A DNA stretch of 64,000 nucleotides. Origin: Stereum hirsutum FP-91666 SS1. Taxonomy: Eukaryota > Basidiomycota > Agaricomycetes > Russulales > Stereaceae. The notes under the pieces were generated by a model. That model was not told the origin of the DNA, searched no databases, and saw nothing but the letters and a program-made list of their open reading frames with translations. Every line of letters begins with the position of its first letter. The stretch's first letter is position 1. A program made the translations under genes and the position numbers. This document shows, piece by piece, positions 2,833-64,000 of this stretch. Location: the NCBI RefSeq assembly GCF_000264905.1, contig NW_006763155.1, positions 271,871 through 335,870 of the forward strand, written 5' to 3'.

Positions 2833-4191
2833 ATGCATTTATATCCCAAGACCGCCCTCGTTCGCTACGGCGGATGGCTTCCTCGCAACAGGGAGGCATA
2901 TGAGATGTTTTTCGCTCAGCTCTCCACCAAGGTTTCGGCATATCGCCAGACTGTATCGACTCACATAGAAGCTGTGGCAGACTTTGAACGCGCCGTCATC
3001 GCCGATCCGGAGATGGTCAATCTGGTCGACCAAATGTTTTCCCAAGCTGAACCCATAAATTACGTATGTTATGCCACTTACTTCCATGCCACTCACTGAC
3101 GGGCGTGCTTTCTCTAGATTGAGGACTTTGCCTTTCTTCTCCACTGCCTCGACATTCTACTCCTTGAACCCCCTGGCTTCCTGGAGAACGCACCGCTCGA
3201 CTTCGTTGGGACGCCACTATGCGTCTTATTCGACGTTCTGAGCAATACCGGCGCGGCATACGATCTCTTTCGAAGGCCCGCATTCAACGTCGCTATGAAG
3301 AAACTACTCGATGCTCGTGGCGCATATCTGAAGTCTCCGGAATCGAACAAGACGCTTACCGACCAGAGGGGAGGGTGGTTCAGTGCCGAAGGTTTGGAGA
3401 CGCTGGCGGGCGATGATCGTGGGGAATTCAACGTGACCTACCTCTGTCCTAAACCAGACGAGATAAATCGCGGGTTTCAGTCATGGAACGACTTCTTCAC
3501 TAGAGAGATCCAGGGGTCAGCCCGCCCTATCGTCTCCGATGCCAACCCCGACACAATCCTAAACGCTTGCGAGTCCGCGGTCTTCCGTCTGGCCCGTAAC
3601 GTCAAAGCTCACGATAAGTTCTGGCTGAAAGCCCAGAATTACTCTCTCTGCGATATGCTCAACGGTGACGAGTGTGCCGCAGAGCACTTCGCTGGCGGAA
3701 CAATCTACCAGGCGTACCTCAGCCCCTACGATTATCACCGCTGGCGAGCCCCGATCTCCGGCACCATTATGAAGACTGAGATCATTCCTGGTACCTATTA
3801 CGCAGTCCTACCGGACGAAGGCGCCGCAGACGACGACCCAAACTTCGAGCCAGGATCTCCTTACGGTGCTCTCGTCCGCTCTGAAGCCTGGATTACGCAG
3901 TCCGCCGCTCGAGCCGTCGTCTATATACAGTCAGACAATCCCAAAATCGGCCTCGTCGCGTTCATCGGAGTTGGGATGGTTGAAATTTCTACTTGCGTTG
4001 TGTCGGTAGAAGTGGGGCAGAGGGTCAGACAAGGAGACGGGATTGGGATGTTCCAGTTCGGTGGATCCTCGCACGTTCTGATATTTGGTCCGGACACCAA
4101 CATCACGTTCGTCGAGGATGTCGAGAGGGATGGTATGGTGATGGTCAATAGCCACATCAAGGTCCGGTCCGTGCTTGGTCGAGTCAATTAA
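2833..4191 (+). CDS. PsiD-like aromatic amino-acid decarboxylase, copy 1
   Basis: The gene has two exons (2833-3063 and 3118-4191, 54-bp intron, phase 0) and encodes about 434 aa. The N-terminal part (RYGGWLP, then a helical region to about residue 75) resembles the PSDC domain that precedes the catalytic part of the fungal L-tryptophan decarboxylase PsiD. The C-terminal part is a phosphatidylserine-decarboxylase fold. YHRWRAP (His284) matches the conserved YHR block, and FQFGGSS (Ser394) matches the self-cleavage site that generates the pyruvoyl cofactor. Canonical PSDs have LGST there, whereas PsiD has GGSS as here. Members of this family decarboxylate aromatic amino acids to amines and are soluble. 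The substrate cannot be read from sequence. Arg287 stands where PSD and PsiD usually have His. An in-frame TAA at 2815 supports the start chosen, unless an upstream intron exists. A paralogue lies at 16655. Confidence 0.9.
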
Positions 4192-6442
4192 CCGACTATA
4201 TACCCTGTTCCCTTCACCTTCTCAATCTCCGACCGTACGTCCATACGCAGTTATGATACTTGGACAATCACGAACGAAGTGTGTAGATGCGTTACCTTGG
4301 AGTGCGGTATGGTGTGAATGCATCTCATTCTGTCTCAAGACTGTTTTTGGAAGAAGTGACGGGCACAGTAATAGTCCAGCCTAGCAATGGGGCGACACAT
4401 GAATCCTGAGTAAGACCACTAGGTACTGCGGCTCACGAATTCACATAGTGTTCCAATTCCTTGTTATTCAGAGGGTACTCATCTCGAGGTGGTGTGGATG
4501 TGTTAAACAATCATTTATATGTGGGAGTCAGTATGCCGACGATAACTGCCTTGAGAAGACAGTTCTAAATGCTGAATGAATGAGCAGTGCCAGTTGGAGG
4601 ATTCCACCCGCCGAACCGCGAAACGTACCGCTATGGCCGTGTATAGCAGTATTGTGCGTTGAGATTGTGTTTCAATGGCTAGAGGGCGCAGTAAAATTTC
4701 ACATCTCGTGTGGACGTCGCAACTAAATATCTAGAAGCAGAACAGGGACTTCAAGTTGAGCTGCGCATCGCTCAGCAGAGTCGTACAGGGAAATCGACTA
4801 TCCAAACGTTATGCCTTATTATGTGCGCTTTAGCTCAGTGTTCGTCAGAATCGCGAGTTCTTTAACTGTATGTAATGTAATGTTATGGGTTACACCATCG
4901 AGTAAGCGGTATGTGTTGTTCTGGGACACAGATCCTGAAACAGCGCAGACCCACTAGCAGGAAATGGAGTTCGAGGTGGACTCACTATAGACCGAGACCA
5001 GTTTATCCCACAAGCGCCAGACCCTCGACCTGTGATTATTTTGTCCATTCGTGTTATAACTCTATAGGATAGATGCAGTCCTAATGAGGGTGTAGCCCTA
5101 TCTTTATTTTACGAGAGTTCGAAGTGGTCCTCTTGAAACTCATCGTGGTGGGTGGAAACAGCAGGGTAAAACAAGCTGTAAACGTGTGGTTCCATGTCAA
5201 GAGAGCGAGAAACTAGCGAGGGCGGCTGCATCGGTTGCTCAGCTCTCCAGTCATCATGTGGCAACGCGTTCCACTTGATTCGGGCATCTGTAAAGAAGAT
5301 GACTACTTATATCAGCATAGCTAGCCCGTGTATGTCAATGATCATACTGTTTCTCGTGAAACTATTGCCCTCGAAGAGTACCGGTTAACATCGATACATT
5401 TTGGGTTGAATCCATAGCGCCACAGGCAAACCATGCGAGGACCGAGATGACGAAGAAGCAGCCATTGCTACCGAAGGGTCTACGAAAAAAAACATAATTG
5501 AGCGCTTGAGTTCAAGTATCTCTCCATTCCACGAGAATTGGCGCTGAGGGTTTTCTGAGCGAGCTTATGGCTATTTTCGTCCAGAGGTCTTTAGATCGTT
5601 TCGTCGGCGTTATGGTGGGCGTCTCGTTCAAGCTCCGGATATTTCCGACCGATCTTGAACGCGCTGGGTCTGGATCTGAACATTCGCTCATCTCTTCTCC
5701 GCGCTCTCTCCAGGTGCCTCTCACGGAGCTCATCGTCTCTGTAGTGGAAACGCCTTCGGATCTATTTGGAGTAAGGTTATGTATACAAGCATACAGAACC
5801 TCATCCATCCATCTTCGTTATACAGATGCGGGCTCGAAAGACGGTTCATCGACTCTCGTCAGACTAGGTCAAACCTCGTCAATGATCGGGAGAGCTAATC
5901 GAACTGTGGACCGTGTAATTTGATTGAATTCTCTAAGACTTTTTGTTTCCTCCTCGACTGCTTTCACTCATACAAGTGCCAATGTCTTATAACCGGTGAG
6001 AAAAGTTTGGATGCATTCTGTGTTCGATGGTGCTGGGACTCATCGTGTAGTAAGGCTAGGCTTCCAAAAACGGTTCATGTCGCCACCGCGAAAAACGCGC
6101 ATATCGCTCCTTCCAGAAATTCAGACGTCCTGTACGCTGTTTCGTGGTACCTTATGCTCATTGGAGCCACAGTGAATGTAGGGTAAGACAGTACGGAGGC
6201 ATAGGTTCTTCCGGCACTCGTACTCGCTCGCTGTCATCACCGATAGCTTTGGTAACCTATGTACCGGTCTCGTCATTTGCTGACTCTTTTCTCTCCATAG
6301 ATTGTTTAGGAATGGATAATGTGCACCTGTAATATCATTTCTTGTTCCATATAAGTGCTGCACGCTGTCTGGATCCTCCACCCCAGCTAGTCCCCCTGTG
6401 AAGCTCTTCCACCATCCGTACCTATCAAACACTCCGTGAAAC
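4192..6442. other. Intergenic, no supported gene
   Basis: This 2.25-kb AT-richer stretch lies between the decarboxylase and the P450. One minus-strand ORF of 98 codons (5808-5512) is Ser/Arg-rich, but it matches nothing I know and has no spliced continuation that I could establish. The 3' end must contain the P450 promoter. Confidence 0.45.
6350..6355 (+). promoter_or_regulatory. TATA-like box of the first P450
   Basis: CATATAAG lies about 90 bp upstream of the chosen ATG at 6443. That distance suits a fungal core promoter. The call rests on motif and position only. Confidence 0.35.
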
Positions 6443-62500: not shown

Positions 62501-64000
62501 ATGCAGTTCCATTCGTAACGGTGATTGCGATGCTGCCATCGTCATAGCTGTCACCACGCAATTTTACCCTGCGGGCGCCATTTTTCGAGCTAGCAATGGC
62601 ATAGTTTCCCCGTCCGGGAGGTGTGCTCCATTTTGCGAATGCGCCGATGGATTCGTTGCCAGCGAAGGAGCCGTAGCGATCGTTCTCCAGAAGTCACACG
62701 ATGCTCTTACGCCCGCATATGGATCTATCCGGGCGTCGACAGTTACGCAGGATGGAGCTTCTAGAGGGTTTTTCGCTCCGAATCCGAATTCACAAAGGAG
62801 GCTTCTAGATGAAGCCCTATCGAGAGCTGAATGCACTGCAGACGATATCACGTTTCTCGAAGGTGCGTTCATTCGAAACTATCGTTGAAATTCAAGTTTA
62901 AATGGACGTCCCTGACGTCGGATTATAGCTCACGGGACTGGGACGCAACTCGGGGACTCCGTTGAAATCCAAGCAGTAAACGACGTATTTAGAGGGGTAC
63001 GTACCAATCCCCTGTATGTGGGGTCCGTCAAAGCCGTTCTAGGACACACTGAGGAATGTGCAGGCCTCACAGGTAAGCAATTCATTCTGCTTTCTTACCC
63101 TATACTCTCACACGATCGTGCGAACAGGAGTATTGAAGGCACTTGTTTGCTTCGAGAAGAATTGCATACCGCCACAGCCTCGCCTTGGAGCTTTGAACGA
63201 ACAGATCGATTTTGACGCGGTACCGATTATTATCCCGTTCACCGCAACCCCATTCTCCCACGGGAACCAGAAGCATATCATCGGAGTCTCCTCCTTCGGA
63301 TTGTCTGGGACCCTTGCTCACCTCATCGTCGAAGAAACACCTCCCCAGAAAGCGACAACGTCCTACGGGATTATCCAGCGGTCATGTGCACCTAACATCT
63401 TCATCGTCACTGCGAATTCTCCCCATGAGCTTCTCTCGATGATTAAGAAGCACAATTTTTTCCTCGAGCACCAGCACTTGCAGCATGCGTCGTTAGCCAC
63501 TACCTGCAGGACGACACAGGTCGGCCGTGATCATCTGCGTTTTCGCCAATCCTGGGTCGTCGATGGATGGAAATCCCTCCGACACGCTCTCAGATCTTTT
63601 TCCACGCCTTCGTCTACCATCCACTTCACAGCCACGCACGTGCGCCCAAGAGTGGGTATCTGGTTCGGAATTCCACTATCCGCCTCCCCCCTCATCACGT
63701 CTCAGCATCCACTATACCAAGAAAAGCTGGAATACTGTAGGAACCTCGGATGGGCTGAGGTCTTCGACTACTTCATGCATCAATTCGCGTTGGTCGAAGT
63801 CTTGAAGGAATTAGGCTGCATCATCACGGCCGTCGGTGGAGAAGGAATTGCGGAGTATATGGCGGCCGTCGTCGCTGGAGTCCTTCCCGAAAGCGTACCC
63901 TTCAGACTACACCAATCAGCGAATGGTGTAGAGAAAGGAGAGCGCTGCTTCGTACGATGTCCAGACTCGAGCGCCCTTGACGAATGTCTTACTTCGTGGT
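59502..64000 (+). CDS. Polyketide synthase-like megasynthase, 5' part (A*-ACP-KS-AT*)
   Basis: Exons are 59502-60268, 60346-60796, 60853-62254, 62315-62446, 62500-62862, 62929-63072 and 63128 onward, open at the window edge. Residues about 1-600 are an acyl-AMP-ligase-like domain with TGDL (about 431), GRNDD (487) and PTTTKHTLNR (578-587). Its P-loop, normally a TSGSTGxPKG type, reads FTSSAIDRETLK (196-207). An ACP follows with LSSLAAVQL (Ser665). The KS starts near 734 and keeps TACSSS (Cys908), AHGTGT (His1040) and GHTEECAG (His1078). The next region matches the AT alignment (EYMAAVVAGVLPE), but GHSxGE is replaced by GEGIAE, so the acyl-binding Ser is Gly (about 1326). Downstream domains are outside the window. 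The start at 59502 was chosen because the 92 upstream codons do not look like the domain. Confidence 0.9.

What the first reader, a model, noticed from the sequence alone, without database searches (positions are those of the whole stretch)
2833..64000. Candidate biosynthetic locus pairing PsiD-like decarboxylases with P450s, GMC oxidases, UbiA and an odd PKS
Seen: two PsiD-like decarboxylases, two P450s, two GMC oxidases of different subfamilies, a UbiA protein and a KS-containing megasynthase within about 61 kb. Known: PsiD-type enzymes make aromatic amines and UbiA enzymes handle isoprenoid diphosphates. Inferred: the locus could make an amine-, isoprenoid- or polyketide-derived compound. 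I do not know a described cluster with this gene set.
Basis: partly seen in the sequence, partly recalled or inferred. Interest (0 to 1): 0.8.

Follow-up and report, generated by a model that had tools for sequence, protein, structure and literature searches.

The report
Stereum secondary-metabolism gene neighbourhood

Summary
The gene list is right. The window encodes two PsiD-like decarboxylases, two P450s (81% identical), an alcohol-oxidase-like and an aryl-alcohol-oxidase-like GMC, a UbiA protein and a KS megasynthase.

One single cluster is only partly supported. UbiA, P450 and GMC genes lie together more often than chance in this genome: 4 of 16 UbiA loci within 32 kb, random mean 0.31 (P450 list incomplete and biased). 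The two other PsiD-like genes have none of these among the listed loci within 60 kb. Hit lists for PsiD, UbiA/P450 and PKS1 share no contig length, a test without a positive control.

The PKS stands apart across 11 kb of gene-poor, repeat-bearing DNA and lies beside genes outside the window, including a second PKS (KS-reductase-AT). It is a complete A-ACP-KS protein without a recognisable AT, found in 15 listed fungal-type homologues.

The Stereum PsiDs group with Mycena, not with other Russulales. I read two adjacent gene groups, products unknown.

The parts
2833..4191 (+). PsiD1, PsiD-like pyruvoyl-type decarboxylase, 434 aa, 2 exons (2833-3063, 3118-4191); FQFGGSSH
6443..8945 (+). P450-1, multi-exon, 81% identical to P450-2
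9708..11490 (+). DUF6697 protein, function unknown; probably not part of a pathway
16655..18068 (+). PsiD2, PsiD-like decarboxylase, 452 aa, 2 exons (16655-16939, 16995-18068); FQFGGSTH; sister of the paralogue on C20 (78.5%)
18970..21780 (-). GMC1, alcohol-oxidase-like GMC oxidoreductase, 596 aa (5' end approximate), tail to tail with PsiD2
22094..23347 (-). UbiA-family membrane protein with NQxxDxxED..NK..RP.P and QDFKD..GD..GR.T.P motifs, same strand as GMC1 and about 0.3 kb from it (ends approximate)
26159..27823 (-). predicted protein without Pfam match
29301..33965 (-). large predicted protein (extent depends on settings; 30208-33604) without Pfam match; its DNA has one partial second match in the genome; looks transposon-like (recalled resemblance only)
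34100..34582 (.). repeated element, about 480 bp, seen in 18 other places (lower bound)
35632..37960 (.). repeated element with about 280 bp inverted ends, carrying a second repeated element at about 36439-37183
41836..44309 (-). P450-2 (public protein P0243, 554 aa), divergent from GMC2
45684..48402 (+). GMC2, aryl-alcohol-oxidase-like, 611 aa, with what looks by eye like a signal peptide; 61% identical over 323 aa to a GMC at C12:1.538 Mb
57044..58916 (.). adjoining short repeated elements in the gene-poor gap between the two groups
59502..64000 (+). PKS1, A-ACP-KS followed by a stretch read by eye as an AT relic, 1501 aa; gene ends at 64506, outside the window

Best explanation
Two secondary-metabolism gene groups lie next to each other near the end of a Stereum hirsutum scaffold. 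Group A (2.8-48.4 kb) is a lineage-specific amine/isoprenoid set. Inferred steps: the PsiD-like enzymes decarboxylate an aromatic amino acid to an arylethylamine; the UbiA protein transfers or cyclises a prenyl diphosphate; the two P450 sister enzymes hydroxylate; the two GMC oxidases turn an alcohol into an aldehyde, which the amine could capture. Group B (59.5-91 kb, mostly outside the window) is a polyketide group. Inferred: PKS1 (A-ACP-KS) activates a carboxylic acid and condenses it; PKS2 (KS-reductase-AT) supplies extender units in trans and releases the chain by reduction; a Tri3-like acyltransferase and flavin oxidoreductases tailor it; an MFS carrier exports it. Shown here: gene content, conserved motifs, gene order, recurrence of UbiA-P450-GMC neighbourhoods. 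Not shown: any reaction, co-expression, or whether the two groups cooperate.
For: Domains and subfamilies. The UbiA carries the residues that are invariant or nearly so in 101 homologues. UbiA-P450-GMC recurrence: 4 of 16 loci against a random mean of 0.31 (p 0.001), and 3 of 15 without this locus (p 0.005). PKS1 motifs kept in homologues, 13 of 15 of them aligned over 99-100% of its length. PKS2 keeps the KS Cys and both His by eye, a reductase domain nearest to 8aep and an AT. An 11 kb gap without a well-scored model between the groups.
Against: PsiD has no such neighbours among the listed loci at its two other places. No second species with the association was seen (no positive control). 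Group A is split by about 18 kb of unknown genes and repeats (24-42 kb). No transporter or regulator turned up in it among the models and ORFs scanned. GMC2 may be a secreted wood-decay enzyme. The P450 list behind the recurrence test is incomplete and enriched for this subfamily; the C12 locus counts only through P450s that came from that added list.
Confidence: 0.45

Rival explanations
1. Chance neighbourhood: a repeat-rich scaffold end has collected members of large oxidase families. The P450 pair is a local inverted duplicate, GMC2 is a lignin-degrading oxidase, and the PsiDs are unrelated to the rest.
For: Large P450 paralogue family elsewhere in the genome; PsiD2's sister lies on another contig; no association at other PsiD loci among listed genes or on shared contigs (no positive control); repeats between genes.
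Against: UbiA-P450-GMC co-location is more frequent than for random positions; the enzyme models are full length with conserved motifs.
Confidence: 0.32
2. One cluster of 61 kb or more: PKS product, prenyl group and amine are joined into one compound.
For: Physical proximity; another locus of the same genome (C12) holds what looks like an orsellinate-type PKS near a UbiA, a GMC and P450s of the window's subfamily, so such combinations occur in this species.
Against: 11 kb gap with repeats; PKS1 homologues share no contig length with listed PsiD, UbiA or P450 homologues (no positive control); a second PKS and PKS-type tailoring genes lie to the right of PKS1.
Confidence: 0.15
3. Only the adjacent trio PsiD2-GMC1-UbiA is a functional unit; the rest is bystander.
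For: Shortest gaps between enzyme genes in the region: PsiD2-GMC1 0.9 kb, GMC1-UbiA about 0.3 kb.
Against: No recurrence of PsiD with GMC or UbiA elsewhere among listed loci.
Confidence: 0.08

Closest known systems
Psilocybin (psi) clusters of Psilocybe and relatives
   Same: A PsiD-family decarboxylase near P450s.
   Different: No kinase or methyltransferase found here among the models and ORFs scanned. The window PsiDs lie in a Stereum-Mycena clade; the two Psilocybe rows in that tree are PsiD-like public proteins, and the P. cubensis one differs from the solved L-tryptophan decarboxylase.
Basidiomycete UbiA prenyltransferases (VibP1/2, ShPT1/2, PanE, ClaS, HePT8, LaPT3; named in PMC12790560)
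   Same: UbiA family; the window protein fits NQxxDxxxD, the example motif in that paper's introduction.
   Different: It lacks the NDxxDxxxD start and the YxxxK that the paper reports for seven of its eight LaPT proteins, and shows only 29% identity over 62 aa to the NDxxDxxxD-type UbiA at C12. No direct comparison with the named enzymes was made.
C12:1.527-1.567 Mb locus of the same genome (candidate source of Stereum prenylated depsides)
   Same: PKS, UbiA, aryl-alcohol-oxidase-like GMC and P450s matched by the window's P450-2, within 40 kb.
   Different: Its PKS looks like an orsellinate-type non-reducing PKS (by eye) and its UbiA has NDxxDxxxD; no PsiD there.
Trans-AT PKS and fungal A-T-reductase (NRPS-like) enzymes
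   Same: PKS1 has no AT match; the PKS2 reductase is nearest to 8aep, deposited as an acetyl-CoA synthetase-like protein.
   Different: PKS1 keeps a conserved stretch that looks like an AT relic; PKS2 joins a KS, a reductase and an AT whose Ser position is Cys.

Membership tests
PsiD-like decarboxylase family | PF12588 + PF02666 architecture, about 440 aa | tested here: met
   both proteins
PsiD-like decarboxylase family | C-terminal GGSS (or GGST) self-cleavage motif | tested here: met
   GGSS in PsiD1, GGST in PsiD2; in the best 120 homologues 88 have SS, 26 ST, 1 SF, 5 none found
PsiD-like decarboxylase family | L-tryptophan decarboxylase activity | not testable with these tools
   needs enzyme assay
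Psilocybin cluster | kinase (PsiK) and methyltransferase (PsiM) beside PsiD and PsiH | tested here: not met
   none among gene models or the 150 of 289 gap ORFs scanned
UbiA superfamily | PF01040 with two Asp-rich motifs | tested here: met
UbiA prenyltransferases as described in PMC12790560 | NQxxDxxxD example motif (introduction) | tested here: met
   NQLMDPDED in the window protein
UbiA prenyltransferases as described in PMC12790560 | NDxxDxxxD, YxxxK and DxxxD set reported for seven of eight LaPT proteins | tested here: not met
   NQ instead of ND and YDELH instead of YxxxK; the second DxxxD-type motif is present as QDFKD..GD
Methanol/alcohol oxidase-type GMC (GMC1) | nearest solved relatives are alcohol oxidases | tested here: met
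   six of the best seven of 64 matched PDB sequences are named alcohol oxidase, the best one GMC oxidoreductase; E 6e-134 to 5e-124, the next match 2e-45
Aryl-alcohol oxidase-type GMC (GMC2) | nearest solved relatives are aryl-alcohol oxidases | tested here: met
   best 3 of 64 matched PDB sequences, E 1.6e-156 to 3e-146
Conventional fungal type I PKS | KS and active AT in one protein | tested here: not met
   no PF00698 match in PKS1; at the place read as the AT relic, GGEG in the window and 12 of 15 homologues, GGDG in one, SGEG in two, GHSxG in none
Single biosynthetic gene cluster | association kept in relatives | tested here: inconclusive
   no shared contig lengths between hit lists; best 120 hits per search only, no positive control
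Single biosynthetic gene cluster | co-expression | not testable with these tools
   no expression data at hand

The most novel reading that the evidence does not exclude
PKS1 and PKS2 form a two-protein fungal PKS that works in trans: an AT-less A-ACP-KS protein loads and condenses an acid, while a KS-reductase-AT protein, whose AT has Cys in place of Ser, feeds it and releases the product reductively. The PKS1 half is conserved across Agaricomycetes and uncharacterised as far as my searches show. In Stereum it sits next to PsiD genes whose nearest relatives are in Mycena, possibly gained by horizontal transfer.
Probability: 0.3. Interest if true: 0.65.

Novelty: new variant of a known kind. 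Interest (0 to 1): 0.42.

Why it matters
If group A is a pathway, it would be a basidiomycete locus joining pyruvoyl-type amine formation to UbiA chemistry, from a species known for prenylated depsides and sesquiterpenes. The PKS side points to an AT-less A-ACP-KS protein kept in many Agaricomycetes with no function that I found. That could be tested directly by expressing the two PKS genes together. Showing that the PKS and the PsiD/UbiA genes probably belong apart also keeps cluster predictors from merging them.

Tried and rejected
Rejected: PsiD1/PsiD2 as a recent tandem. PsiD2 is closer to the C20 paralogue (78.5%) than to PsiD1 (64%). Rejected: PsiD+P450 copied as one block. The P450s are closest to each other among those compared (81%), the PsiDs are not sisters. 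Rejected: PKS1 as a truncated pseudogene. 13 of the 15 fungal-type homologues align over 99-100% of it; the other two over 69% and 86%. Weakened: the 30-34 kb gene as a high-copy transposon. Its DNA has only one partial second match. Led nowhere: a first gene prediction with a cheap intron penalty ran through the whole strand; Rfam and tRNA scans were empty; P450-2 against PDB gave only distant enzymes; the A domain of PKS1 gave only weak PDB matches, the best a dihydroxybenzoate-adenylating enzyme at E 0.001. Literature searches listed no title or abstract start that describes this locus or the A-ACP-KS family; the library lacks most subscription papers, and I did not see the 2012 survey of basidiomycete PKSs that PMC9769804 cites.
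Full report
ORIGIN. The window is G000:C25:271871-335870 in a 45,982,361-base genome of 38 contigs. Contig C25 has 363,854 bases. The public P450 P0243 (100% over the P450 part of the query) and UbiA P0241 (same sequence as my model apart from splicing) are listed for Stereum hirsutum FP-91666 SS1 on a contig of that same length, and another Stereum P450 lies on a contig of 3,727,085 bases, the length of C2. I therefore take the genome to be that strain, a wood-rotting member of Russulales (order and lifestyle from recall, as are the orders of the other fungi named below).

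GENE CONTENT. I wrote a simple splice-aware predictor. Its first setting failed and ran through the strand; stiffer penalties gave stable models. Pfam confirmed PsiD1, PsiD2, P450-1, P450-2, UbiA, GMC1, GMC2 and a DUF6697 protein; two further models had no family. Weaker models at 24565-25309 (-) and 28050-29229 (+) were not scanned as proteins. Against solved structures, PsiD2 is nearest to the L-tryptophan decarboxylase 8x4q (E 2.6e-57), GMC1 to alcohol oxidases and GMC2 to aryl-alcohol oxidases. GMC2 begins with what looks by eye like a signal peptide. To see whether enzymes had been missed, I scanned the 150 longest of 289 gap ORFs of at least 60 aa: the known DUF6697 and two weak matches (DUF7603, zinc knuckle) appeared. 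Genes of short exons could still be missed.

GROUP A, GENE BY GENE. PsiD1 and PsiD2 are 64% identical; a paralogue on C20 is 78.5% identical to PsiD2, and a distant one on C2 is 37-40% identical to the others. All four keep the FxFGGS motif. In a tree of 42 rows that I chose (39 of the 120 listed homologues plus three Stereum proteins), the Stereum proteins and three metagenomic relatives join Mycena (96/91); a larger set of 74 rows gives Stereum plus Mycena 100/100. Artomyces and Auriscalpium, other Russulales, sit elsewhere with Athelia. Forcing the Russulales rows together is rejected (AU p 2.6e-69; with Athelia added 6e-66); I named these groups after seeing the tree, which the tool warns about. 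Horizontal transfer between a Mycena-like and a Stereum-like fungus, or an old duplicate lost in other Russulales, would both explain this; sampling was limited to the best hits. The two P450s are 81% identical and closer to each other than to the five other Stereum P450s compared (57-71%), so they probably arose by duplication; they now lie in opposite orientation 35 kb apart. The UbiA has NQxxDxxED..NK..RP.P and QDFKD..GD..GR.T.P. Most of these residues are invariant or nearly so in 101 homologues (the hits of 260-345 aa, among them the public copy of this protein); the D after NQxx is present in 47 of them. PMC12790560 gives NQxxDxxxD as an example of the UbiA motif, which the window protein fits, but reports NDxxDxxxD and YxxxK for its own enzymes, which it does not fit. 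Whether it prenylates or cyclises is open.

IS GROUP A MORE THAN CHANCE? From genome searches I listed 16 UbiA, 51 GMC, 100 P450, 9 KS and 4 PsiD-like loci. One search scored only 92 of 412 P450 candidates, and I added loci of the window's own subfamily, so the P450 list is incomplete and biased. Four of 16 UbiA loci (C2, C11, C12, C25) have both a P450 and a GMC within 32 kb, against 0.31 for random positions (p 0.001); without the window's own locus 3 of 15 (p 0.005); at 20 kb 3 of 16, or 2 of 15 without it (p 0.012). Contig lengths in that test were partly guessed and covered 33.6 of 46.0 Mb, and C12 counts only through the added P450s. The result supports a link between the gene classes, not the particular subfamilies. 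The two PsiD-like loci outside the window have none of these genes among the listed loci within 60 kb; the models around them include a nitronate monooxygenase-like and an old-yellow-enzyme-like protein on C20 and an ABC-transporter-like protein on C2 (names by recall, not scanned).

ASSOCIATION IN RELATIVES. The protein search gives contig lengths, which I used as contig labels. Among 118 PsiD hit lengths (120 listed hits less the window's own and one without a length), 120 UbiA/P450 hit lengths and the 15 PKS1-like hit lengths, no length occurs in two sets. UbiA and P450 hits were pooled, because their search used a joint query. Stereum's own PsiD was listed with a 7,956-base contig and its PKS1 was not listed at all, so even the known neighbours in Stereum would not have shown: there is no positive control. 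Only the best 120 hits of each search were visible. This is weak to moderate evidence against a conserved association.

GROUP B. PKS1 (59502-64506) is A-ACP-KS; Pfam finds no AT. Fifteen proteins of similar length and make-up come from Heterobasidion, Armillaria, Hysterangium, Collybia, Cyclocybe, Sanghuangporus, two Pleurotus species, Amanita, Mycena floridula, Lentinula, Dentipellis, Rickenella and two metagenomes, at 37-48% identity. I picked these 15 from 120 listed hits (158 in all, with only the 7,994 candidates sharing most words scored). Two longer Mycena galopus proteins at 26-27% also have AMP-binding, ACP and KS but add KR and AT; most other listed hits are bacterial or ordinary PKS/FAS. 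In the alignment the KS Cys and the second His are kept in 16 of 16, the HGTG His in 15 of 16 (the Heterobasidion row has a gap there). Behind the KS a stretch that I read by eye as an AT relic has GGEG in the window and 12 homologues, GGDG in one and SGEG in two, never GHSxG. The adenylation P-loop is unusual (TSS in place of the usual TSG start). Beyond the window lie an MFS carrier, a DUF6533 membrane protein, an alpha/beta hydrolase, a Tri3-like acyltransferase, PKS2, a LURP-one-related protein and a flavin oxidoreductase; a second model at 89.6 kb resembles the latter and was not scanned. The contig ends at about 92 kb in window coordinates. PKS2 has KS, reductase (nearest 8aep) and AT. 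Its AT aligns GYCFGE to GHSQGE, so Ser is replaced by Cys. Its third KS motif (TVVGHCHGSAALVG) is present in the DNA although my model skipped it. PKS2 has no close paralogue in the genome (its best other matches are about 34-35% identical). Whether PKS2 accompanies PKS1 in other fungi was not tested.

THE GAP. Between GMC2 (48.4 kb) and PKS1 (59.5 kb) only two weak models appeared (scores 1.3 and 4.7), with nothing in Pfam that would make them enzymes. Repeated elements fill 57.0-58.9 kb, and others lie at 34.1-34.6 and 35.6-38.0 kb. I read this as a boundary, but gaps and repeats do occur inside fungal clusters.

A COMPARISON LOCUS. At C12:1.527 Mb one predicted protein of 2253 aa looks like an orsellinate-type non-reducing PKS (by eye, not scanned). 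Near it are an aryl-alcohol-oxidase-like GMC (61% to GMC2 over 323 aa), a short-chain dehydrogenase-like protein and a UbiA with NDILDRDVDAG; P450s found with the window's P450-2 lie 16-22 kb beyond that UbiA. S. hirsutum makes isoprenylated depsides, the sterenins (passages of PMC8540757; PMC9769804). I think C12 is the better candidate for those compounds, which leaves the window's product unassigned.

LITERATURE. Seen: part 1 of 5 of PMC12790560; passages of PMC12603985, PMC9769804, PMC6121855 and PMC8540757; otherwise search listings only. An isoindolinone-type product (amine captured by a prenylated aromatic aldehyde, as recalled for Hericium compounds) would fit group A, but nothing here tests it.

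VERDICT. Parts of the interpretation hold, but PsiD, UbiA and PKS are not shown to belong together, and the PKS probably belongs to another group. The most interesting lead is the two-part PKS.

Noticed in passing
C25, window coordinates 77026-81419 (outside the window): PKS2, a KS-reductase-AT protein whose AT has Cys in place of the usual Ser (GYCFGE), 12.5 kb from PKS1.
   Followed up: partly
window 2833-4191 and 16655-18068; C20:829594-830962: The Stereum PsiD-like proteins group with Mycena and not with other Russulales; possible horizontal transfer or old paralogue.
   Followed up: partly
C12:1526729-1545897 (L041, L042): Non-reducing-type PKS, aryl-alcohol-oxidase-like GMC, SDR-like protein and NDxxDxxxD-type UbiA: candidate cluster for Stereum prenylated depsides.
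   Followed up: partly
C25, window coordinates -34795 to -29701 and -13677 to -8603; C25:213623-218679: Three long, similar predicted proteins with an N-terminal hydrolase-like part (DUF2235 by recall) and WD40-like repeats, starting about 21-24 kb apart.
   Followed up: no
C9:106080-108129 and C18:40605-42658: Two other UbiA genes each have a P450 about 1.7 kb away, in a similar arrangement; perhaps a duplicated pair.
   Followed up: no
window 34100-34582, 35632-37960, 57044-58916: Short repeated elements, some nested, with many full or partial copies in the genome.
   Followed up: partly
window 24565-25309 (-) and 28050-29229 (+): Two weaker gene models whose proteins were not scanned.
   Followed up: no
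window 17181-18089 (-): A 302-codon open frame runs antisense to PsiD2; probably a by-product of codon usage.
   Followed up: no
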